From Verrucomicrobiota bacterium JB022 (GTDB lineage: Bacteria; Verrucomicrobiota; Verrucomicrobiia; Opitutales; Oceanipulchritudinaceae): a stretch of 64,000 bases of DNA. Below are positions 3,844-48,080 of this stretch, piece after piece. The notes under the pieces are model-generated. The model had not been told where the DNA came from, searched no databases, and saw only the letters and a list, made by a program, of their open reading frames with translations. The DNA lies in NCBI GenBank assembly GCA_030673845.1, contig JAUTCQ010000001.1:186001-250000 (forward strand), given 5' to 3'. The stretch's first letter is position 1, and every line of letters begins with the position of its first letter. The translations under genes and the position numbers were made by a program.

Positions 3844-5941
<2,098 letters not shown>

Positions 5942-38548: not shown

Positions 38549-40012
38549 ATGTCATCGAAACTCCCTTACAGTCGGCAGATCATGGCCGGGGCGTGGGTCG
38601 GCAACGTGCTTTTGACCATCATCGCGTTTGTCCTGGCCTTCATGCACCCGGACAAGTTGTCGCCGCTCACGTTCATCGCGGCCGCGTTCGCCATCCTCTC
38701 CGGTAACCTGCTGCCGCTGGCCGTCTACATCATCGAGCTGCTCTACCACCAGGCCGAGGTCAAGGCCGAGAACGCCAAGGCCGGGGATACCCTCCGGCGC
38801 GTGGCTGCGCGTATCGAGCAGCTGGAAGCCCGCCTGCAGGAGACCTCCGAGGCCGCTTCCAAGAGCATCCTTATCGCGCGGCAGGTGCCTGACCGGATCG
38901 ATGAAAAGCTCAAAGGCTTTCAGGCCTTCGTAGAGCTGGCGCAGGAAGGTGGTTTGAAGGACCTGCTGGGCCAGATCGGCAACCGCAGCAGCGCTCCTGC
39001 TGCTCCCGCTGCCGATCCGGCGCAGCTCAAGGCCCTGGAGGCGAAAGTCGATGCCGTCCTGCAGCGTCTGGAGCAAATGCCCGCCACTGCGGTGGCGGCA
39101 GCGCCGGTGGAAACGCCGGTCGAAGCGCCCAAGCCAGCCCCGATTTCGCCGGTTGCCCCCGCCAAGGCCGAATCCAAGCCGCGCCGCCTCGGGCGAGGTC
39201 TGGACCGCCTGATCAGCAAGGGCGTGGCTGGCTCGGCCGCCGCCAAGCCCAAGCCGATGCCCCCGTTGGAACCGGCACCCGCCCCTGAGGCAGCGCCGGA
39301 ACCCAAGCCTGAGCCGGAGCTGACCTTGGAGCCTGCCGAAGAGCTGGAAAGCATCGACGATGGACTCGAAGAGCTGGACGACATCGAATCGCCTTTGGGC
39401 CGCCAGCGCGCGAGCGCTCAGCCGGAGCTGTCCGAGCTTGCCGAGGAAGAAGCCGAGCTGGAGGCGGAAGCCGAAACCGTCGAGGCTGCCGAGGAGGAGG
39501 AAGCGGACGAAGACCAGAACTGGCTCGACGACGACGAACTCGCGGCGCTCGAAGACGATTTTGCGGGCGAAGTCTCGGTAGAAGAAGAGGAAACTCCTGC
39601 TTCGGAAGAGCCTGCCGCCTCGGACTTCGAAAAGCCGACTCCGGTCGTTGCTTCCGCCGCCGACGAGGCCCTGACCTTCGACGACGACGAACTGAGCTGG
39701 GACGAGGAAGGCTTTGACTTCACCCATGGCCAGGAAGCCCCGGCGGTCACGAACAAGCAGAAGAGCACCGTCGTCGTGCGCGCCATGGTGGGCAACGACC
39801 ACACGATCACGCTGCGCGGGGCCGCCCCGTTGCGCGAAGAGGTGGGCTTGCCCTTGCCCATGACCGGCGTCGGCGAATACCGCTGGGAAGTCGAGCTGGA
39901 CGAGCCCGTGCTTTTCCAGGTCTACCTCGACGACCAGGTGCAGGCCGCCGGCGAAGTCCAGCTGCTGGAGCCCGGCCAGACGCTCCGTCTCATGCCGCGC
40001 TTCCCGCGCTAG
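38549..40012 (+). CDS. Membrane-anchored coiled-coil protein with acidic linker
   Basis: A 487-residue protein of unknown function, starting at ATG 38549. Two hydrophobic helices lie at ~14-33 (GNVLLTIIAFVLAFM) and ~43-62 (FIAAAFAILSGNLLPLAVYII). A cytosolic coiled coil follows at ~65-125, then a long low-complexity Ala/Pro/Glu-rich linker (~150-380) with very acidic blocks. The last ~85 residues form a compact beta-rich domain (STVVVRAMVGNDHTITLRG, GEYRWEVELDEPVLFQVYLDD, LLEPGQTLRLMPRFPR) reminiscent of carbohydrate-binding or glycogen-binding beta sandwiches. It begins 17 nt after rsmB and ends in its own terminator. Confidence 0.75.
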   Translation: MSSKLPYSRQIMAGAWVGNVLLTIIAFVLAFMHPDKLSPLTFIAAAFAILSGNLLPLAVYIIELLYHQAEVKAENAKAGDTLRRVAARIEQLEARLQETSEAASKSILIARQVPDRIDEKLKGFQAFVELAQEGGLKDLLGQIGNRSSAPAAPAADPAQLKALEAKVDAVLQRLEQMPATAVAAAPVETPVEAPKPAPISPVAPAKAESKPRRLGRGLDRLISKGVAGSAAAKPKPMPPLEPAPAPEAAPEPKPEPELTLEPAEELESIDDGLEELDDIESPLGRQRASAQPELSELAEEEAELEAEAETVEAAEEEEADEDQNWLDDDELAALEDDFAGEVSVEEEETPASEEPAASDFEKPTPVVASAADEALTFDDDELSWDEEGFDFTHGQEAPAVTNKQKSTVVVRAMVGNDHTITLRGAAPLREEVGLPLPMTGVGEYRWEVELDEPVLFQVYLDDQVQAAGEVQLLEPGQTLRLMPRFPR

Positions 40013-40037
40013 AAAACGGATTAGAGGTGCAATAGAC

Positions 40038-40064
40038 AGGCGGCTGATAAGGCCGCCTTTTTTT
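40038..40064 (+). terminator. Intrinsic terminator of the coiled-coil protein gene
   Basis: AGGCGGC (40038-40044) pairs with GCCGCCT (40052-40058), followed by seven T. Confidence 0.85.
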
Positions 40065-40070
40065 ATGCAC

Positions 40071-40103
40071 AAAAAAGCCCGCCAGCCGGAGAGGCTAGCG
40101 GGC
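40071..40103 (-). terminator. Intrinsic terminator of pnp
   Basis: On the minus strand GCCCGCTAGCC pairs with GGCTGGCGGGC (one mismatch) and is followed by a T run (A tract at 40071-40076). It stands back to back with the previous terminator. Confidence 0.85.
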
Positions 40104-40129
40104 GAAAGGTATCAATGGGCGGTCAGGGA

Positions 40130-42556
40130 TTAACCTTCGTCGCTGAGGCGTTCGCCGCCTTCAGCTTCGCGGCGCTCACCGCCTTCACGCTCACGGCGTT
40201 CACCACCTTCACGGCGCTCGCCGCCTTCGCGACGGGGGCCACGACGGCGGGGGCGGTCGTCACCGCCACGGCCACCGCGTTCGCCGCGATCACCACGGTC
40301 GCCGCGCGGGCCACGGTCGCCACGGGAGCCGCGATCACCACGGTCACCGCGTGAGCCACGATCACCACGGTCGCCACCGCCGTTTTGGGCGTAGCGCTCC
40401 TTGGCGGCGGCCACCTTGCCGGCGATGCCGTCTTCACCTTCGCGCTCCTGAAGAGCGGCGACACGGCTCAGGCGCACGCGGCCCTTTTCGTCGATACCGA
40501 CGCACTTGACCCACATTTCGTCGCCCAGCGAGCAGACGTCTTCCACCTTGTTGACGCGGAAGTCGGCCAGCTCGGAGACGTGGACGAGGCCTTCCTTGCC
40601 CGGCAAGCACTCGACGAAGCAGCCAAACTCCTTGATGCCACGGACGATACCGCGGTAGAGCTTGCCTTCTTCGATGTCGGCCGTGACGAGGGCGATTTCT
40701 TCCAGCGCGCGGCGCATGGATTCGCCCGTCGTGGCGTAGACGTTGACGCGGCCGGAGTTGTCGTCGGCGATGTCGATCTCGGCGCCGGAGACTTCCACGA
40801 TGCGGCGGATCGTCTTGCCGCCGGTGCCGATGAGGGCGCCGATCTTGTCCGGCTCGATCTGGATCGTCTCGATGCGGGGGGCGTAGGGGCTGAGTTCGGC
40901 GCGCGGGGCGGAGATGGATTCGGCCATGACGCCGAGGATCTTGTCGCGCAGCTCCTTGTTGCGGCGGATGGCTTCGACCGCGATCTTGTGCGGAATGCCG
41001 CCGATCTTCAAGTCGAGCTGGAAGCCGGTAATACCGTCCTTCGAGCCGCAGATCTTGAAGTCCATGTCGCCGAAGTGGTCTTCCGCACCGATGATGTCGG
41101 AGAGGACGACGTGGCGCTTCAGCTTGCCCTTGCCGTCAAACTCCGTCACGAGGCCGCAAGAGATACCGGCCACCATGTTGGTGATCGGCACGCCGGCGTC
41201 CATCAGGCTGAGGCAGCCGCCACAAACGGAAGCCATCGAGGTGGAGCCGTTAGACTCCATGATCTCGGAGACGAGGCGGATGGTGTAGGGGAATTCGTCT
41301 TCGGCGGGGATGATCGGGAGCAGCGAGCGTTCGGCCAGGTTGCCGTGGCCGATTTCGCGGCGGCCCGGGCCGGCGATGCGGCCGGTCTCACCCACGGAGA
41401 AGTTCGGGAAGTTGTAGTGCAGGAGGAAGGACTTTTCCTTCGGGCCGCCTGTCAGGCCGTCCATCTCTTGCGTTTCGCCGGAAGCGCCGAGGGTCGTGAA
41501 GACGATGCCCTGGGTTTCGCCGCGCTGGAAGAGGGCGGAGCCGTGCACGCGGGGGTAGAGGCCCACTTCGCACGAAATCGGGCGCAGGTCCTTGGGGGTG
41601 CGGCCGTCGGCACGCTTGCCTTCGTCGAGGATCTTGCTGCGGTAGAGTTCTTCCTGCAGTTCTTCGAAGACGAGCATGATCTGGTCGCTCTCGAAGTCGT
41701 CGCCGTCGCGCTCCTGCATGGCGGCGCGGGCTTCGTCCTTCAGCACGTCCACGGCCTTGCTGCGCTCGGCCTTGGAATCCTTGAAGACGGCAGTCTGGAG
41801 GCGGTCGCCGAGCAGCTTGCGCACAAAGTCGACGTTTTCCTTCTTCGCGACGAAGAGGTTGAAGGTCGCCTTTTCCTTGGCGCACTGGGCGGCCAGTTCT
41901 TCCTGCGCCTTGATGATCGGCTGGATCGCCTTCTGGGCAAATTCGAGGGCGGCGATGAAGTCGTCGTCCGGCAGCTCTTCGGCCGAACCTTCGATCATCA
42001 TCATTTCCTTCTTGTTGCCGACGTAGATGAGGTCGAGGTCGCTCTCATACATCTGCTCGTGGGTCGGGTTGACCACGAATTCGCCGTCGATCATGCCGAT
42101 GCGGACGCAGCCCACCGGGCCGTTCCACGGGATGTCGGAGCAGAGCAGGGCGGCGGAGGCCGCATTCACCATCAGGATGTCGGGCTCATTCACCGCATCG
42201 GCGGAGAAGAGCAGGCCCTGCACCTGGACTTCGTTCATGAAGCCATGCGGGAAGAGGGGGCGCAGGGGACGGTCGCAGAGGCGGGAGGTGAGGATTTCCT
42301 TCTCGCTCGGGCGGCCTTCGCGCTTGAAGAAGCCACCGGGCATGCGGCCCGCAGCGTGATACTTCTCGCGGTAGTCGACCGTGAGGGGGAAGAAGTCCTG
42401 GCCTTCGCGCAGCTTGGTGGCGGCGGTGGCGGCGACGAACAGGGTCGTTTCGCCCTTGCGGATGGTAACGGAGCCATTGGCCAGCTTGGCCAGCGTACCG
42501 GTCTCGATCGTAATGTCGTATTCCGGAATGTAGACGGAGTACTTCTGCTTGAACAT
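40130..42556 (-). CDS. pnp: Polyribonucleotide nucleotidyltransferase (PNPase) with Arg/Gly/Asp-rich tail
   Basis: Phosphorolytic 3'-5' exoribonuclease of mRNA decay. The product has 808 residues against about 700 usual. Two RNase PH domains ([30 protein letters not shown]; second core [34 protein letters not shown] in part, the catalytic Asp in [11 protein letters not shown]), then a KH domain ([15 protein letters not shown], ~555-610) and an S1 domain ([19 protein letters not shown], ~625-695). Residues ~715-808 form an unusual tail of RGD, RGS, RGG and GGERR units, likely disordered and RNA- or protein-binding. A strongly folded leader lies just upstream, as expected for PNPase autoregulation. 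Confidence 0.96.
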
Positions 42557-42582
42557 GTTCTAACTATTTGGGTTTTGCGGAA

Positions 42583-42681
42583 CCGCCTCCACGTCGCTCC
42601 CAGGAAGTTCGCCGAGGCACCCGGGGGTAAGGCGGATGCACCGGCGGACTTCCTGCGAATCGGGTCGTCTCGTGGAGGCGG
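42583..42681 (-). promoter_or_regulatory. Long double-stem structure in the pnp leader
   Basis: Two nested inverted repeats lie 27-125 nt upstream of the pnp start. The outer stem is 11 bp and perfect (42583-42593 with 42671-42681); the inner stem is 14 bp with one G-T pair (42601-42614 with 42642-42655), enclosing a 27-nt apical region. The pnp leader in Escherichia coli is also folded and is cut by RNase III for autocontrol; a similar role is inferred. The remaining bases of the gap (42682-42769) show no gene. Confidence 0.65.
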
Positions 42682-42769
42682 GAATTAAAAGAAACAGTCG
42701 TAAAGCACTTCCGCGCCGATGAACAGAATTTTCCGCGCGGAAGTGAGGTTGGCCGAGATGAGCGGCCCT

Positions 42770-43597
42770 CTAATACTCGAGCCGATAGGCGGCTACGGTA
42801 TTACCGGCAAAGGTGGGCACGAGGACCAGTCGCTCTGCCGGGATATAGCCGATGTCGGCGGTATTCAGGCCCTGCTCTCGGGTATCTAGCATCTGGGTGG
42901 CCTTGCTGCCTTGCACGAGGAAGACTTCGCCCGACCAGTGGCTGGCGACCCAGGTATCGCCGGTCAGCGCCACCAGGCCGTCGCCGCCCTTGACGCCGTC
43001 GCTCACCATCTCCGGGGCCGAGCCGTCGAGCGGGTACTGGCGGAAGCCCAGGTTATCCAGCGCGTAGAGCTTGCCATTGCGGAACTGGAGCCCGTTGACC
43101 CCCTCGCGGTCGTCGGCGAAGAGGGAGATCTTGCCCTTTTTCAGCACGTGGACTTTGCCCGTGCGCGTGTCGGAGACGTAGACCTTGCCCGCGTAGGCCG
43201 CCACGTCGTTGAGGAACACGGCATCTTTGACGGGGTAGCGCTTGAGGATCTTGCCGGTTGCAAGGTCGATCTCCACCAGGTCGTCGAGGTCGGCCACGTA
43301 GAGCTTGCCGTCGCTGATCGCGAGGCCCTTGGGCGCGTCGAGGCCTTCGACCCACTTGAGCTCCAGCACCTTGCCCTCGGTCGAAACCTTGGAGATGAAG
43401 CCGACCCCGTCGGCTTCGGCGGGGTTGCCGACGATGTTGCTGACGAAAATGTAGTCGCCCGTGTGATAGTAGAGGGCCGATTCGCAAGTCGTCAGCACCG
43501 GTTCGGTTTCCCAGACTTTGGTCAATGTCTGGGCCGTCGCCGTGGCGGCCGAAGAGAGGATGGCTGCAGCCAGAAGGGGGAGATAAGAGCGCTTCAT
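42770..43597 (-). CDS. Secreted SMP-30/gluconolactonase-like beta-propeller protein
   Basis: A 275-residue protein with a signal peptide (MKRSYLPLLAAAILSSAATATA, cut before QTLTK). The mature part has repeated propeller blades, e.g. APKGLAISDGKLYVADLDDLVEID, FLNDVAAYAGKVYVSDTRTGKVHVL, GVNGLQFRNGKLYALDNLG and GYIPAERLVLVPTFAGNTVAAYRL. The Asn and Asp positions typical of the SMP-30 metal site (LNDVA, VNGL, YVSD) are recognisable. Substrate cannot be predicted. It is downstream of the small secreted protein gene on the same strand, but a terminator hairpin separates them. Confidence 0.8.
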   Translation of the reverse strand: MKRSYLPLLAAAILSSAATATAQTLTKVWETEPVLTTCESALYYHTGDYIFVSNIVGNPAEADGVGFISKVSTEGKVLELKWVEGLDAPKGLAISDGKLYVADLDDLVEIDLATGKILKRYPVKDAVFLNDVAAYAGKVYVSDTRTGKVHVLKKGKISLFADDREGVNGLQFRNGKLYALDNLGFRQYPLDGSAPEMVSDGVKGGDGLVALTGDTWVASHWSGEVFLVQGSKATQMLDTREQGLNTADIGYIPAERLVLVPTFAGNTVAAYRLEY

Positions 43598-43672
43598 GGC
43601 CCCGCAGCATGGGAAAAACGGGCCAAATTGGAAGTCGGATCGGGATATTTCGGCGCAGTTGGCTTGTCTAGC

Positions 43673-43703
43673 AAAAGACGCTGGCGAACAAGTCGCCAGC
43701 GTC
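43673..43703 (-). terminator. Intrinsic terminator after the 120-residue secreted protein gene
   Basis: An 11-bp perfect stem (43677-43687 with 43693-43703, five-base loop) is followed on the minus strand by TTTT. It lies 30 nt beyond the stop of the upstream minus-strand gene. Confidence 0.75.
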
Positions 43704-43733
43704 GTCGAATGCTCGGGAATCTGAGAGGTCCGC

Positions 43734-44096
43734 TTAATAAACGTCCACGTAGACGTAATAGATTGTCATGTGGCTGGAGACTTCGAGCCGGTATTCGCCC
43801 GCCGGCAGGCTGTTAAATTCAAACCACGCGTAGTCGGAATAGACGGTCCCGTCATCGGGCTGGGTGCCGCCAAGCGGTGCATACGAATAGCCTGCCGCAT
43901 CCCAGGCGCCGACGATCTGGTTGTCTTCGTCATACAGGTAGTAGACTTGCGGCGCGTTCTGCTGGAAGTTGATTTGGAACACGACCAGCGAGCCGTTGGA
44001 GGTAAACGTCTCTGTGACGGTATTGGCCGAGGCGACAGCCGGGAAGAGGAAGGAGAGAAGGAGCGCAAAGAGCGCGGTGTAGCTGCGGTTGTTCAT
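43734..44096 (-). CDS. Small secreted protein of unknown function
   Basis: A 120-residue protein. The signal peptide is SYTALFALLLSFLFPAVASA. The mature domain is beta-rich and aromatic (FTSNGSLVVFQINFQQNAPQ in part, QVYYLYDEDNQIVGAW, YAWFEFNSLPAGEYRLEVSS, YYVYVDVY), with a pattern (D/E-N-x-I-V-G, LPAGEYRLEV) like one extracellular immunoglobulin-type or carbohydrate-binding sandwich. No cysteines, no sorting signal. Probably periplasmic or exported. It is a single-gene unit with its own terminator. Confidence 0.7.
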   Translation of the reverse strand: MNNRSYTALFALLLSFLFPAVASANTVTETFTSNGSLVVFQINFQQNAPQVYYLYDEDNQIVGAWDAAGYSYAPLGGTQPDDGTVYSDYAWFEFNSLPAGEYRLEVSSHMTIYYVYVDVY

Positions 44097-44275
44097 GTTC
44101 TTTTTTGGGGTGGGGAGTGTAGCTTTCGTGAGGCGGCGGACGGGCGCGAATCGCCTGTCGGTCCAAGGCCGCTTATAGCTCGCGGAAGCGGTGTGGATGA
44201 AATCGCTTAAGGCCTCTCATGTCCAATGGCTGATTTTCTGACCGTAAATATTTAAGTTAATGCACGTTTGTATGG

Positions 44276-44923
44276 GTGGAGATAGGATCAACCTGCGCGC
44301 AAGAAATTCTGGTGACTTACATGCCGAATTTCTTTATCTGGATTGCGATGCGCTTACTCGTGAAAAAGGCGATTAGGTTCTACTTCGGCTTCTTTTTGCT
44401 GGCCTTTGTCGTAGGGCATGTGGACTTAGTCTTGGCCATCAGCCGGAAAGACGTAAACGACTATAATCGCCCATTGTTAGCTCTGCCCGGTGCCCTCATG
44501 AAATGGGATGGCGGTACACGTTATTGGCTTGGCCTCGGCTATGTAATCATCCGGCGAAACGAGATAATATTTGAGGACGGGGACACCATTGTTTCGAATT
44601 ACCTGCACGGTTGGGAGTTGCGGCCTTGGCCGATCTTTCGAATCCCGTTTATTGGAAACAGCCTCTTTGCTATGGAGAGACTGGACGAATACAGGAATCT
44701 CAAGGATCCCTTTGATTTGACTAGCGCAGAGTTTGTCGTGCCAAGCATGCGGGAGGAGACGCTTCAAGATGAACGTTTTTGGGAAGATGTGCGTTGGGTG
44801 GTCTCGGGCGTGGGCTTTGTGCTACTTTTTTTATTTTGGAGGCTGTTTGCTTGGCTGTATGGATTCCTGAAGCATAGGGGCAGCAGGCGTGGGCAGGTCG
44901 AGCAGTTTGATCATCCGCGCTAA
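44276..44923 (+). CDS. Orphan membrane protein of unknown function
   Basis: Up to 215 residues from GTG 44276; ATG 44321 (MPNFFIWIAMRLL) or ATG 44348 are alternative starts. It has an N-terminal hydrophobic segment (FYFGFFLLAFVVGHVDLVLAI, with the preceding helix) and a second near the C-terminus (WVVSGVGFVLLFLFWRLFAWLYGF). The loop between (residues ~60-175) is soluble and has no motif I recognise. GC content is visibly lower than the neighbours, which suggests recent acquisition. The last codons and the stop fall within a dispersed intergenic repeat. Confidence 0.6.
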   Translation: MEIGSTCAQEILVTYMPNFFIWIAMRLLVKKAIRFYFGFFLLAFVVGHVDLVLAISRKDVNDYNRPLLALPGALMKWDGGTRYWLGLGYVIIRRNEIIFEDGDTIVSNYLHGWELRPWPIFRIPFIGNSLFAMERLDEYRNLKDPFDLTSAEFVVPSMREETLQDERFWEDVRWVVSGVGFVLLFLFWRLFAWLYGFLKHRGSRRGQVEQFDHPR

Positions 44924-44947
44924 TCTGCGTTTCATCTGCGGCTGAAA
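44910..44947. repeat. Dispersed intergenic repeat, ATCYGCG type, copy 2
   Basis: Same length and phase as 21055-21091: three words ATCCGCG, ATCTGCG, ATCTGCG and the ending GGCTGAAA. The T/C differences from copy 1 fall mainly in the YG positions. It supplies the TAA stop of the preceding gene. Confidence 0.55.
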
Positions 44948-44986
44948 CCACTTCCAGAACTCCTCCGCCCTTGATTCCCGGAGCAC

Positions 44987-45016
44987 AAAAAAGCCAACCA
45001 CGTGCGGTGGTTGGCT
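44987..45016 (-). terminator. Intrinsic terminator of rpsO
   Basis: AGCCAACCAC (44992-45001) pairs with GTGGTTGGCT (45007-45016); on the minus strand six T follow. Confidence 0.88.
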
Positions 45017-45047
45017 TGCAGGAAAGGGTGATGAACCCGGAATCGAA

Positions 45048-45320
45048 CTAGCGGCGCAGCTTGAGGCGCTCGAGCATGCTCTTGTACTTCTCGAGGTCGT
45101 GCTTCTTGACGTAGTCGAGCAGCTTACGACGGCGATTGGTCAGAGCGATCAGGCCGCGGCGGGAGTGGAAGTCCTTGCGGTGCGTGCGGAGGTGATCCGT
45201 CAGGTGCACGATGCGCGCGGTCAGGAGCGCGATCTGGACTTCCGGGCTGCCGGTGTCGGATTCGTGGGTCTTGAAGTCAGCGATAACGCTGGCCTTGTCA
45301 ACTTGGCTGGAGGTAGACAT
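45048..45320 (-). CDS. rpsO: 30S ribosomal protein S15
   Basis: The 90-residue protein binds the central domain of 16S rRNA early in 30S assembly. Family signatures are THESDTGSPEVQIALLTARI, LTDHLRTHRKDFHSRRGL and LTNRRRKLLDYVKKHDLEKY. It lies 2.5 kb from pnp and the two are not adjacent, unlike the rpsO-pnp order of many bacteria. The 181 nt between it and the uridine kinase gene show only a CCCGG/CCGGG dyad (near 45407-45420) and no obvious promoter. Confidence 0.97.
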   Translation of the reverse strand: MSTSSQVDKASVIADFKTHESDTGSPEVQIALLTARIVHLTDHLRTHRKDFHSRRGLIALTNRRRKLLDYVKKHDLEKYKSMLERLKLRR

Positions 45321-45501
45321 GTATTTTTGATGAGGTGCACGACTGCGGGGGAAGGGCGACTCACCACTTCCGCCGAACCCGCCGAGGCCGGTCCGACCGT
45401 TTTAACCCGGGGATCCGGGCCAGTCGCGGAACTGCTCGCTCGCGCGCTCAGTTCTCAACGCAAAGAGGAAGAAAACAATCAGTGCCGGCGGTGCTGGCAA
45501 G

Positions 45502-46125
45502 TCAAAAAGCCAGGCGGACGGATGCTTTTTCGCGCAGCTGACACCGCAGGCTCTCGATCGCCGCTTCGGTGGTGCCAGTATTGGAGACGACGAGGTCGGC
45601 GCTGGCCGCGTAGGGCTGCACGTAGTGGGCGTGCATCGGCTCGACGGTCGAGGTAAATTGCGCGTGCACACTGGCGGCGCTGCGCCCGCGTTCGCCCACA
45701 TCGCGTTGCAGCCGCCGAGCGAGACGGAGGTCCGCCGGGGCGTCCACAAACACCGCGAGGTCGATCAAGGCGCGCAGGCCGGGCAGGGCAAAGAGTAGCA
45801 CGCCGTCGAGGATCAGCACCGGGCGGGGTGGGAAGGGCTCGGTGCCGCAAGGCTGGTGAGTGGTGAAGTCGTAGCGTGGCACCTCCACCGCTTGCCCGGC
45901 GCGCAGAGCTGCCACATCCCGGCAAAAACGCTCGCCTTGGAGGCAGCCCGGATGGTCGTAATTGCCGGCGAGGGCGGGCGGGATATCGTCCGGGCCCTGG
46001 TAATAGCGGTCCAGCTCCAGCAGGGCGGATGTGTCGGGGAGACGGGCGTGGAGCCAGCGCGCGAGCAGGCTCTTGCCGCTGGCCGAGCCGCCGCCAAAGC
46101 CGATCACGTAGACGGGCTCGCTCAT
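45502..46125 (-). CDS. Uridine kinase family protein
   Basis: A 207-residue P-loop kinase starting at 46125 (MSEPVYVIGFGGGS). Walker A is GGGSASGKSLLARWL. LLELDRYYQGPDD is the substrate-binding acidic segment, NYDHPGCLQGERFCRDV and VPRYDFTTHQP are characteristic of uridine/phosphoribulokinase-type enzymes, and ILDGVLLFALPGL forms the Walker B region. It probably phosphorylates uridine/cytidine in salvage, but the family includes other small-molecule kinases. It is translationally coupled to the upstream histidine kinase gene (TGATG overlap). Confidence 0.85.
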   Translation of the reverse strand: MSEPVYVIGFGGGSASGKSLLARWLHARLPDTSALLELDRYYQGPDDIPPALAGNYDHPGCLQGERFCRDVAALRAGQAVEVPRYDFTTHQPCGTEPFPPRPVLILDGVLLFALPGLRALIDLAVFVDAPADLRLARRLQRDVGERGRSAASVHAQFTSTVEPMHAHYVQPYAASADLVVSNTGTTEAAIESLRCQLREKASVRLAF

Positions 46126-48080
46126 CAAAGCACGAAGGTGAAGGTAGTCCCGACGTCGACTTCGCTGCGCACCGATACGCTGCCACCTTGCGACTCGACC
46201 TGGCTTTTGACGAGGAAGAGCCCGACCCCGTGGGCGTCGGCGTTGCGGTGGAAGGTCTGGTAAAGGCCGAAGAGCTTGTGCCCGTGGCGCTGCAGGTCGA
46301 TCCCCTGGCCGTTGTCGCGAAATGCCAGCTCGACGTGTCCGCCGGGCAGGGGGCGACTGCGGATGCGCAGGAGGGGCACGCGCTCCGGCGAACGGTATTT
46401 GAGCGCGTTGGATGCCATGTTGAGGAAGATGCTTTCCAGGTAGGCGGGCACGAAGGCGATCTGGGGCGCGGCGGAGAAGTCGGCTTCGATCTGGGCGTCC
46501 AGAGCCTCAACCTCGGATGCGAGGATCTGTTTCACCTTTTGCAGCACGTCCTCAAAGGCGAGGACTGCGCGCTCTTGCTCCACCTGGCTTTGCACCTTCA
46601 CCAGTTCGGACAGCTCTTCGATCGTGCTGAAGAGTGTTTCGCTGGTGGAGCCGAAGAGCTCGATCAGCTCTTCGCGCATCTCGGCATCGTCTTCGGTGCG
46701 GTAGAGGTCGAGCAGGCTGCGCAGGTTGCCCGTGTGGGTGCGCAGGTTGTGCGTCACGATATGTGCAAAGTGGGTCAGCCGGGTGTTTTGCTTGCTCACG
46801 ACTTCCAGGGTGCGGCGCAGCTCCAGCTCGCGGCGCTTGGGTTCGTCGATGTTCTGGAGAATGCCCCGCAGCTTCACCACCTCGCCTTTGGAGTCGAGAA
46901 CGGGTTCGCCGCGGGCTCGTGCCCAAAAAATTTCCCCTTCCACCGGCTGCAGGCGCAACTGCAGCTCGAAGGGTTTGCAGGCGAGGCGGCACTGCTTGAC
47001 GGCTTCGGTGATGGTGGGCCGGTCTTCCTCGACATAGAAGTCTATCCCCGTCAGCAGGTCGGGCTTGAAATCGGAGGCGACGCCATGCATTTCCCGCACT
47101 TCGGGGGACCAGTAGAGCGTTTCGTTGACGAAATCGAGCTCCCAGCTGCCGATCATGGCGAGGCGCGTCACCTCGTGCAGGTGGTAGCTTTGGCGTTCGA
47201 GCGCGAGCTCCTTTTCCTTGCGGTCCTGAATGTCGAGCATGGCGCCGATCATGCGCAGCGGCTGGCCGTCGGTGGCGCGGGTGCAGGTGCCGTGCGCTTC
47301 CACCCAGTGGTAGTGTCCGTGCTGGTGGCGCACGCGGAATTCGACCCGGTAGGGCAGGCCTTCCTCAAAGTGGTTGCGCGCGGCCAGGCGGACTTTTTCC
47401 CGGTCGTCGGGGTGCATCAGCTGGTAGAGCGTCTCGCGCGAGGCTGGCAGCGCGCCCGCCTCGTAGCCCAGGATCTCGTAGAGCCGGTCCGACCAGATGG
47501 CCTCGCCGGTCTCGACGTTGTGGTCCCAGATGCCAGCGTGGATGTTGGAAAGGATGAGGTGGAGCTGCTCGAAACTGGCTTCGAAGGCCTGTTGCTGCTC
47601 CTGTTCGCGGGTGACGTCGAAGCAGCAGCCAAACATGAGGGAAGGCCGCCCATCGGGCGTCCAGCTGGCGATGCGGCCAAAGCTGTGCACCCAGATGATG
47701 CCGCCTTCGCGGTGGCGCGCGCGGAAGGTGCAGCGAAAGGGGATGCGGCCCTTGCTCAAAATATGCTGCTCACGCACCCGGGCGACGAGGGTGAGGTCGT
47801 CGGGTAAAATGAGTACGCGGAGGTCGTGCCGGTTCTGGACGGTGGTGGCCGAGATGCCGAAGATCGCCAAGGCTCCCGGGCTGAGAAACATCTCTTCGCT
47901 CGCGATATCCCAGGTCCAGTAGCCGGCGCGGCTGCCTTCGATCAATGTTTCGAACCGCAGGTCCTGCTCGTCGATCCGCTGGCGCAGGCGGGTGTTTTCG
48001 GCGCGCAGCTGGCGCAGCTCGGCGGCTGGGTCTTGGCCTTCGGGCCCGGCAGTGTCTACGGCGTTCGACATTAAAAACAT
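46125..48080 (-). CDS. Multi-PAS sensor histidine kinase
   Basis: A 651-residue cytosolic kinase. An N-terminal coiled coil (PAAELRQLRAENTRLRQRID) is followed by three PAS/PAC modules: ~50-165 (SRAGYWTWDIASEEMFLSPG), ~170-290 (HAGIWDHNVETGEAIWSDRL) and ~300-415 (AMIGSWELDFVNETLYWSPE). The H box is HIVTHNLRTHTGNL, and the ATPase domain has FLNMASNALKYRSPE (N), FRDNGQGIDL (G1), KLFGLYQTFH (F) and HGVGLFLVKSQVE (G2). No transmembrane helices and no receiver domain. No response regulator gene is adjacent. It ends overlapping the start of the uridine kinase gene. Confidence 0.92.
   Translation of the reverse strand: MFLMSNAVDTAGPEGQDPAAELRQLRAENTRLRQRIDEQDLRFETLIEGSRAGYWTWDIASEEMFLSPGALAIFGISATTVQNRHDLRVLILPDDLTLVARVREQHILSKGRIPFRCTFRARHREGGIIWVHSFGRIASWTPDGRPSLMFGCCFDVTREQEQQQAFEASFEQLHLILSNIHAGIWDHNVETGEAIWSDRLYEILGYEAGALPASRETLYQLMHPDDREKVRLAARNHFEEGLPYRVEFRVRHQHGHYHWVEAHGTCTRATDGQPLRMIGAMLDIQDRKEKELALERQSYHLHEVTRLAMIGSWELDFVNETLYWSPEVREMHGVASDFKPDLLTGIDFYVEEDRPTITEAVKQCRLACKPFELQLRLQPVEGEIFWARARGEPVLDSKGEVVKLRGILQNIDEPKRRELELRRTLEVVSKQNTRLTHFAHIVTHNLRTHTGNLRSLLDLYRTEDDAEMREELIELFGSTSETLFSTIEELSELVKVQSQVEQERAVLAFEDVLQKVKQILASEVEALDAQIEADFSAAPQIAFVPAYLESIFLNMASNALKYRSPERVPLLRIRSRPLPGGHVELAFRDNGQGIDLQRHGHKLFGLYQTFHRNADAHGVGLFLVKSQVESQGGSVSVRSEVDVGTTFTFVL

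What the first reader, a model, noticed from the sequence alone, without database searches (positions are those of the whole stretch)
42583..42681. Folded leader RNA upstream of pnp: candidate autoregulatory element
An 11-bp perfect outer stem and a 14-bp inner stem are nested within 99 nt, ending 27 nt before the start. Such long stems by chance are improbable. In Escherichia coli, PNPase controls its own mRNA through RNase III cleavage of leader stems. A similar or new cis-acting RNA is likely here, of a different shape.
Basis: partly seen in the sequence, partly recalled or inferred. Interest (0 to 1): 0.6.

Follow-up and report, generated by a model that had tools for sequence, protein, structure and literature searches.

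The report
Conserved hairpin in PNPase mRNA leader
The messenger RNA for the RNA-degrading enzyme PNPase in this verrucomicrobial bacterium begins with a real, evolutionarily conserved hairpin structure that is probably cut by RNase III so that PNPase can limit its own production, much as in E. coli but with its own conserved sequence signature.

Summary
The folded leader is real and conserved. On the mRNA (minus) strand, 42681-42583 folds into an 11-bp outer stem around a long imperfect hairpin (z -6.9, 0 of 200 shuffles). Of 15 family genomes in which pnp was found, 11 carry the element just before its start. The lower hairpin arms are nearly invariant, with a C.A mismatch in 11 of 11; the upper stem covaries, 8 of 19 pairs showing double changes. 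An outer stem of unrelated sequence re-forms clearly in 6 of 11, weakly in 5. Each of the 11 genomes has one full-strength copy, at pnp. Rfam has no such family. Here the element stays with pnp although rpsO is 2.5 kb away. Best reading: an RNase III-processed leader through which PNPase limits its own mRNA, as in E. coli. The K-12 leader is predicted to have the same nested shape, so "a different shape" is not supported. Many other Verrucomicrobiota pnp leaders are also unusually structured. Cleavage, feedback and the transcription start are untested.

The parts
42583..42681 (-). whole leader element of the pnp mRNA (outer stem, asymmetric internal loop, inner hairpin)
   Evidence: fold z -6.88 on the mRNA strand; model R1 84.5 bits at 42573-42693 (the window is one of the model's own sequences)
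42671..42681 (-). outer stem, 5' arm CCGCCTCCACG
   Evidence: cognate flank pairing across the family
42583..42593 (-). outer stem, 3' arm CGTGGAGGCGG
42601..42655 (-). inner hairpin; lower arms conserved in 11 leaders, upper stem covarying
   Evidence: the arm pattern occurs once in the genome
42647..42647 (-). C of the invariant C.A mismatch (partner 42609)
   Evidence: C.A in 11 of 11 leaders
42609..42609 (-). A of the invariant C.A mismatch
40130..42556 (-). pnp, polynucleotide phosphorylase (808 aa) with RNase_PH, PNPase, KH and S1 domains
   Evidence: Pfam
45048..45320 (-). rpsO (ribosomal protein S15), here 2,491 nt upstream of pnp; in the 10 family relatives with the element it lies about 149-442 nt upstream

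Best explanation
It is a cis-acting leader RNA of pnp that lets PNPase limit its own synthesis. SHOWN by comparison: a conserved structure (inner hairpin with nearly invariant lower arms and a covarying upper stem, in most cases inside an outer stem of changing sequence), with one full-strength copy in each of 11 genomes, just upstream of pnp. INFERRED: RNase III cuts the long inner helix on both strands, leaving a short 5' RNA paired to the new 5' end of the pnp mRNA. PNPase trims that short RNA from its 3' end, or binds the leader, which exposes the mRNA to RNase E/G and lowers translation. When PNPase is scarce the duplex persists and the message is stable. The invariant arms and C.A mismatch exceed what general dsRNA cleavage should need, so they probably set the cleavage site or bind a specific protein (PNPase or RNase III).
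For: Stable on the mRNA strand. Covariation in 11 distinct leaders: 96.2% of 209 cells paired, 8 of 19 pairs with double changes (shuffled mean 4.7, reached in 4 of 500), 24 double-change cells against 6.9 (sd 2.0) in shuffles and at most 10 when slid by 1-3 columns; RNAalifold recovers the hairpin unaided. Outer stem: cognate flanks pair at -25.3 kcal/mol on average against -17.8 for flanks swapped between genera. One full-strength hit per genome, at pnp, in 11 of 17 family genomes, 15 of which gave a pnp match. It stays with pnp although rpsO is 2.5 kb away here. RNase III, RNase E/G and KH+S1 in PNPase are present. The E. coli leader, known for this circuit, is predicted to have the same nested fold. 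[quoted passage not shown] burgdorferi, S. coelicolor, S. pyogenes and C. jejuni (PMC8708148, passages).
Against: No transcript, cleavage or regulation data exist here. Nine of 19 inner pairs never vary, so covariation is silent on them. The outer stem is uneven: shuffled flanks pair as well in 0-1 of 200 for 6 leaders but in 12-24 of 200 for 5 (L007, L010, L012, L013, L016), and in 6 of 11 leaders at least one swapped pair does as well. Four genomes of the same family lack the element although they have pnp, so the circuit, if real, is not tied to this sequence. The invariant C.A would be a U.G pair on the opposite strand, so an antisense role is not formally excluded.
Confidence: 0.6

Rival explanations
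1. A conserved leader RNA of pnp bound directly by PNPase (KH/S1) or another protein, repressing translation without RNase III cleavage.
For: The lower arms of the hairpin are nearly invariant in sequence, which fits specific recognition better than general dsRNA cleavage. In E. coli, routes that do not need phosphorolysis, including probable translational repression, are described, and an RNase III-independent one is named in a reference title (PMC10362022, passages).
Against: The long, almost fully paired inner helix is what an RNase III substrate looks like, and RNase III is encoded.
Confidence: 0.2
2. The hairpin is a stability or processing element only: RNase III matures the rpsO-pnp readthrough transcript or the 5' end of pnp mRNA, with no feedback by PNPase.
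For: In 10 of 11 leaders rpsO lies directly upstream, and in S. coelicolor and E. coli RNase III cuts a hairpin in that gap of the readthrough transcript (PMC10126417, passages).
Against: Arm sequences are conserved beyond need; in the window the element persists although rpsO is 2.5 kb away.
Confidence: 0.1
3. The functional RNA is on the opposite strand: an antisense small RNA like E. coli SraG, which is annotated in the rpsO-pnp gap.
For: SraG is annotated there in K-12. The invariant C.A mismatch of the mRNA strand is a U.G pair on the other strand; the plus strand also folds well.
Against: The mRNA strand is the more unusual of the two (z -6.88 against -4.90). Apart from the invariant mismatch, wobbles fit the mRNA strand better (my count, pairs 0-7 and 9-19: 9 G.U cells against 4 A.C cells); with the mismatch included the count turns to 9 against 15.
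Confidence: 0.05
4. A DNA-level feature: palindromic operator, terminator or mobile repeat.
For: The lower arms are near-invariant inverted repeats, as an operator would be.
Against: The upper stem covaries and the hairpin length varies from 45 to 59 nt; one pattern match in the genome and one full-strength model hit in each of 11 genomes speak against a dispersed repeat; no terminator was called in 41800-43200.
Confidence: 0.03

Closest known systems
Escherichia coli pnp leader (RNase III-processed, PNPase-autoregulated)
   Same: Place (5' leader of pnp, downstream of rpsO in most relatives); predicted nested outer stem plus long inner hairpin with an asymmetric internal loop; similar excess stability at like length (z -5.04 for 176 nt; z -4.04 for 180 nt); same set of enzymes encoded.
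   Different: Model R1 finds no match in it. E. coli has a second small hairpin before the start that the window leader lacks. Nearly invariant arms with a C.A mismatch mark this family. Cleavage and feedback are reported for E. coli, not tested here. Only predicted folds were compared; the published E. coli structure papers are not held.
Streptomyces coelicolor rpsO-pnp intergenic hairpin
   Same: Hairpin between rpsO and pnp, cut by RNase III, lowers PNPase (PMC10126417, passages).
   Different: There the cuts lie on the two sides of a 4/4 internal loop; its sequence was not compared here; different phylum.
Other pnp leaders of Verrucomicrobiota (clade-specific hairpins)
   Same: In many, a long imperfect hairpin just before pnp with conserved arms; excess structure over other gene leaders.
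   Different: Different arm sequences; in 83 other pnp loci none of the 6 rows of model R1 lies in the sense-strand leader.

Membership tests
RNase III-processed autoregulatory pnp leader (E. coli type) | Structured RNA directly upstream of pnp on the mRNA strand | tested here: met
   (that it is transcribed is inferred)
RNase III-processed autoregulatory pnp leader (E. coli type) | Structure under selection (compensatory changes) | tested here: met
   inner hairpin; outer stem clear in 6 of 11, weak in 5:
RNase III-processed autoregulatory pnp leader (E. coli type) | Nested long helix as in E. coli | tested here: met
   predicted folds of both leaders only
RNase III-processed autoregulatory pnp leader (E. 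coli type) | Sequence similarity to the E. coli leader | tested here: not met
   no match of R1 in the K-12 locus, (the circuit is not defined by sequence, but common descent is not shown)
RNase III-processed autoregulatory pnp leader (E. coli type) | RNase III, RNase E/G and KH+S1 PNPase present | tested here: met
RNase III-processed autoregulatory pnp leader (E. coli type) | RNase III cleaves the hairpin | not testable with these tools
   needs RNA
RNase III-processed autoregulatory pnp leader (E. coli type) | PNPase lowers its own mRNA or translation through the leader | not testable with these tools
   needs reporter fusions
Any Rfam 15 family | Match at the leader | tested here: not met
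   window 40000-46500, up to E 5: one match, not at the leader. Ten of the 11 family loci (L013 not given), up to E 1: five rows, all below gathering score and none at a leader
Intrinsic terminator of rpsO | G+C stem followed by a T-run, beside rpsO | tested here: not met
   none called in 41800-43200; element stays with pnp 2.5 kb from rpsO
Dispersed palindromic repeat | Many copies per genome | tested here: not met
   one pattern match in 4.35 Mb; one full-strength model hit in each of 11 genomes

The most novel reading that the evidence does not exclude
Across Verrucomicrobiota the pnp message carries a leader hairpin whose arm sequence is fixed within a clade but replaced between clades, so that a specific reader (PNPase or RNase III) and its RNA signal have changed together. 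The feedback design is the same as in E. coli while the recognition sequence has been rewritten several times.
Probability: 0.3. Interest if true: 0.6.

Novelty: new variant of a known kind. Interest (0 to 1): 0.42.

Why it matters
PNPase self-control through an RNase III-cut leader is a classic case studied in few bacteria. A covarying, sequence-marked leader in a little-studied phylum suggests that this control is more widespread, gives a ready family model for annotation, and points to fixed arm sequences and a C.A mismatch that can be mutated to learn what PNPase or RNase III reads.

Tried and rejected
Rfam: one match in the window stretch (anti-hemB, 17 bits against a cut-off of 49.5, at 40069-40140) and five rows in ten family loci. 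The latter are four at L010 1384-1483, beyond the 3' end of pnp and far from its leader at 3953-4068, and one at L008 3035-3199 inside pnp; all are below gathering score. Terminator or promoter scan of 41800-43200: none. Dispersed repeat: rejected. A leader peptide was considered and set aside because hairpin lengths (45, 48, 50, 55, 56, 57, 59 nt) do not keep a frame; no dedicated test was run. Weak model hits away from pnp (L113 28.3 bits, L125 19.7 bits, L126 27.0 bits) have no significant PNPase match by tblastn and are treated as chance. R1 on 83 other pnp loci gave 6 rows, best 26.9 bits: L094 6787 and L094 1348 are far from the pnp start, L053 543-678 (two rows, both strands) lies over 2 kb upstream of it, and L057 2709-2739 (13.1 bits) is on the antisense strand about 260 nt upstream. 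A shared upstream promoter motif was looked for by eye in 11 leaders without a clear result. Variant B (Opitutaceae-like) did not give a clean ungapped stem in my anchored table (62 of 128 cells paired, 4 of 5 leaders anchored), so I do not claim it. The anchored table for variant C/E (181 of 269 cells) is biased by its anchors, which fix the U.C mismatch. Alignment A2 was poorly aligned and was not used for counts. The structured-RNA survey looked up by DOI and two E. coli pnp papers are not held and were not read.

Print searches: searches listed no paper on a pnp leader in Verrucomicrobiota. They showed 20 of 51, 2 of 2, 15 of 98, 12 of 41, 0, 1 of 1, 0 and 12 of 1,298 papers; only open-licence papers are searched, and apart from passages of four papers I saw listings only.

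Full report
WHAT IS THERE. pnp (808 aa; Pfam RNase_PH, RNase_PH_C, PNPase, KH_1 and S1) runs on the minus strand, 42556 to 40130. Its leader RNA, 42681 to 42583, forms an 11-bp perfect outer stem (42681-42671 with 42593-42583), an asymmetric internal loop and an inner hairpin (42655-42601). On the mRNA strand the energy is -61.9 kcal/mol against a shuffled mean of -38.3 (z -6.88, 0 of 200). In the mRNA it is 8 pairs, a C.A mismatch (42647/42609) and 6 pairs with one G.U wobble, then further pairs above another mismatch.

RELATIVES. PNPase was found in 15 of 17 genomes held for the family; 80 more loci, the best of 585, came from named records, by their titles Verrucomicrobiota. Eleven distinct pnp leaders share the element (window, L007 to L016; L021 has the same leader as L007). 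Their lower arms read (C/U)AGGAAGU-C-CGC and GCG-A-(A/G)CUUCCU(A/G), with the C.A mismatch in 11 of 11. The hairpin is 45-59 nt long and ends 30-79 nt before the start codon inferred from the alignment to the window's PNPase.

COVARIATION. Alignment A1 (11 sequences, 126 columns): RNAalifold finds the inner hairpin and a four-pair piece of outer stem on its own, with 11 of 22 pairs showing a double change. On the named inner stem, 201 of 209 cells pair (96.2%). Eight of 19 pairs have double changes (shuffled mean 4.7, reached in 4 of 500 shuffles); 24 double-change cells stand against 6.9 (sd 2.0), reached by none; sliding by 1-3 columns gives 1-10. Nine pairs never vary and say nothing. The stem was derived from these sequences, so the slide control leans in its favour; the sequences are related and cells are not independent events.

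OUTER STEM. It cannot be aligned because its sequence changes, so I asked whether each leader's own flanks pair better than flanks swapped between genera: mean -25.3 against -17.8 kcal/mol, and each cognate value is below its own swapped mean. But in 6 of 11 leaders at least one swapped pair does as well (L012: 5 of 14). Single-letter shuffles of the flanks do as well in 0-1 of 200 for 6 leaders (L001, that is the window, L008, L009, L011, L014, L015) and in 12-24 of 200 for 5 (L007, L010, L012, L013, L016). I call the outer stem clear in 6 of 11 and weak in 5; in the window it is 11 perfect pairs.

SPECIFICITY. The arm pattern occurs once in the 4.35-Mb genome (25 contigs, 97% complete). Model R1 gives one full-strength hit (76-94 bits), at pnp, in 11 of 17 family genomes; the other rows are echoes of the same site on the other strand (23-43 bits) and two weak off-site hits (G013, 28.3 bits; G009, 19.7 bits). 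These 11 are the model's own sequences, so the new information is the single copy and the absence elsewhere. Six family genomes lack a full-strength hit: in two (G001, G004) pnp was not found at the threshold used, and in four (G012 to G015) pnp is present with another leader. In 273 genomes drawn from the order (256 outside the family, stricter filters that can lose weak matches) only these 11 and one weak hit appear (G056, 27 bits, no PNPase in its locus). No Rfam family matches at the leader.

LINK TO pnp, NOT rpsO. In the 10 other leaders rpsO lies about 149-442 nt upstream of pnp on the same strand. In the window rpsO (45048-45320) is 2,491 nt away, with two same-strand ORFs (42770-43597, 43734-44096) between. 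The element has stayed next to pnp, which argues against an rpsO terminator; none was called.

MECHANISM. The genome encodes RNase III (Pfam 78.2 bits; 237-aa ORF) and RNase E/G (343 bits), and PNPase has KH and S1. In E. [quoted passage not shown] A review says RNase III repression of PNPase is conserved in B. burgdorferi, S. coelicolor, S. pyogenes and C. jejuni (PMC8708148, passages); another describes the S. coelicolor rpsO-pnp hairpin and its cleavage (PMC10126417, passages). The K-12 leader is predicted to fold into an outer stem and an asymmetric loop around a long inner hairpin (176 nt, z -5.04; the window's 180 nt, z -4.04), that is, the same nested design, without a match to R1. I therefore place this leader with that circuit by way of working (0.60), not by descent. 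Cleavage, feedback and the transcription start were not tested.

STRAND. The mRNA strand has the stronger z (-6.88 against -4.90). Outside the invariant mismatch, wobble cells in the table favour the mRNA strand (9 G.U against 4 A.C over pairs 0-7 and 9-19). Including the mismatch, the balance turns (9 against 15), so an antisense RNA is not formally excluded; E. coli has SraG annotated there.

WIDER VIEW. I folded the 120 nt before pnp in 91 of 95 pnp loci (left out: L007, same leader as L021; L076, whose contig starts inside pnp; L020 and L094, whose start my script's anchor missed). The 80 leaders outside this family set have mean z -2.67 (42 of 80 below -2) against -0.82 (35 of 173) for other gene leaders in the same loci (Mann-Whitney p 5e-11, one-sided; loci are related, so the p-value is optimistic). 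The 11 family leaders have mean -4.2, 8 of 11 below -3. To keep rpsO terminators out I took 42 loci outside the family whose rpsO ends 205-355 nt before pnp, from the 80 rows that one search printed: mean -2.79, 26 of 42 below -2. Several clades seem by eye to have their own conserved arms. One group of 6 (L073, L078, L082, L085, L087, L091; L073 and L082 are close) has a consensus fold of 26 pairs, 9 with double changes. A Spartobacteria-like group shares UUAGG..CCUAC arms (anchored table, so biased). Not all leaders are structured: 16 of 42 and 38 of 80 do not reach z -2. Whether the variants share an ancestor is open.

VERDICT. A real, conserved leader RNA of pnp that is not in Rfam 15; a new variant of a known kind of control. 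The print searches listed no paper on it, within an open-licence library and capped lists.

Noticed in passing
window 40130-40462 (-): The PNPase C-terminus after the S1 domain is a long Arg/Gly/Asp-rich low-complexity tail (repeats like [14 protein letters not shown]), possibly an RNA-binding disordered region.
   Followed up: no
window 42770-44096 (-): Two ORFs (275 aa with a weak NHL-repeat match; 120 aa without a Pfam match) lie between rpsO and pnp, which are neighbours in the 10 relatives with the element.
   Followed up: partly
window 42706-42745 (-): A second inverted repeat (CACTTCCGCGCGGA / TCGGCGCGGAAGTG) upstream of the leader, perhaps the terminator of the 42770-43597 gene, without a clear T-run.
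   Followed up: no
L017, L018, L020 (same family, genus g9), within about 120 nt before pnp: These three leaders lack the element but share another motif by eye (GGAAGGGGT..CCCCTCG) inside different outer stems, perhaps a replacement leader.
   Followed up: partly
L057 and L067, about 170-60 nt before pnp: Very long hairpins made of short CTTAAT-like repeats and their complement lie in the pnp leaders of Chthoniobacter flavus and an uncultured Spartobacteria bin.
   Followed up: no
L128 (own genome contig C17): A second, short RNase III-domain protein (Mini-III-like by eye; 27 bits, at the Pfam cut-off).
   Followed up: no
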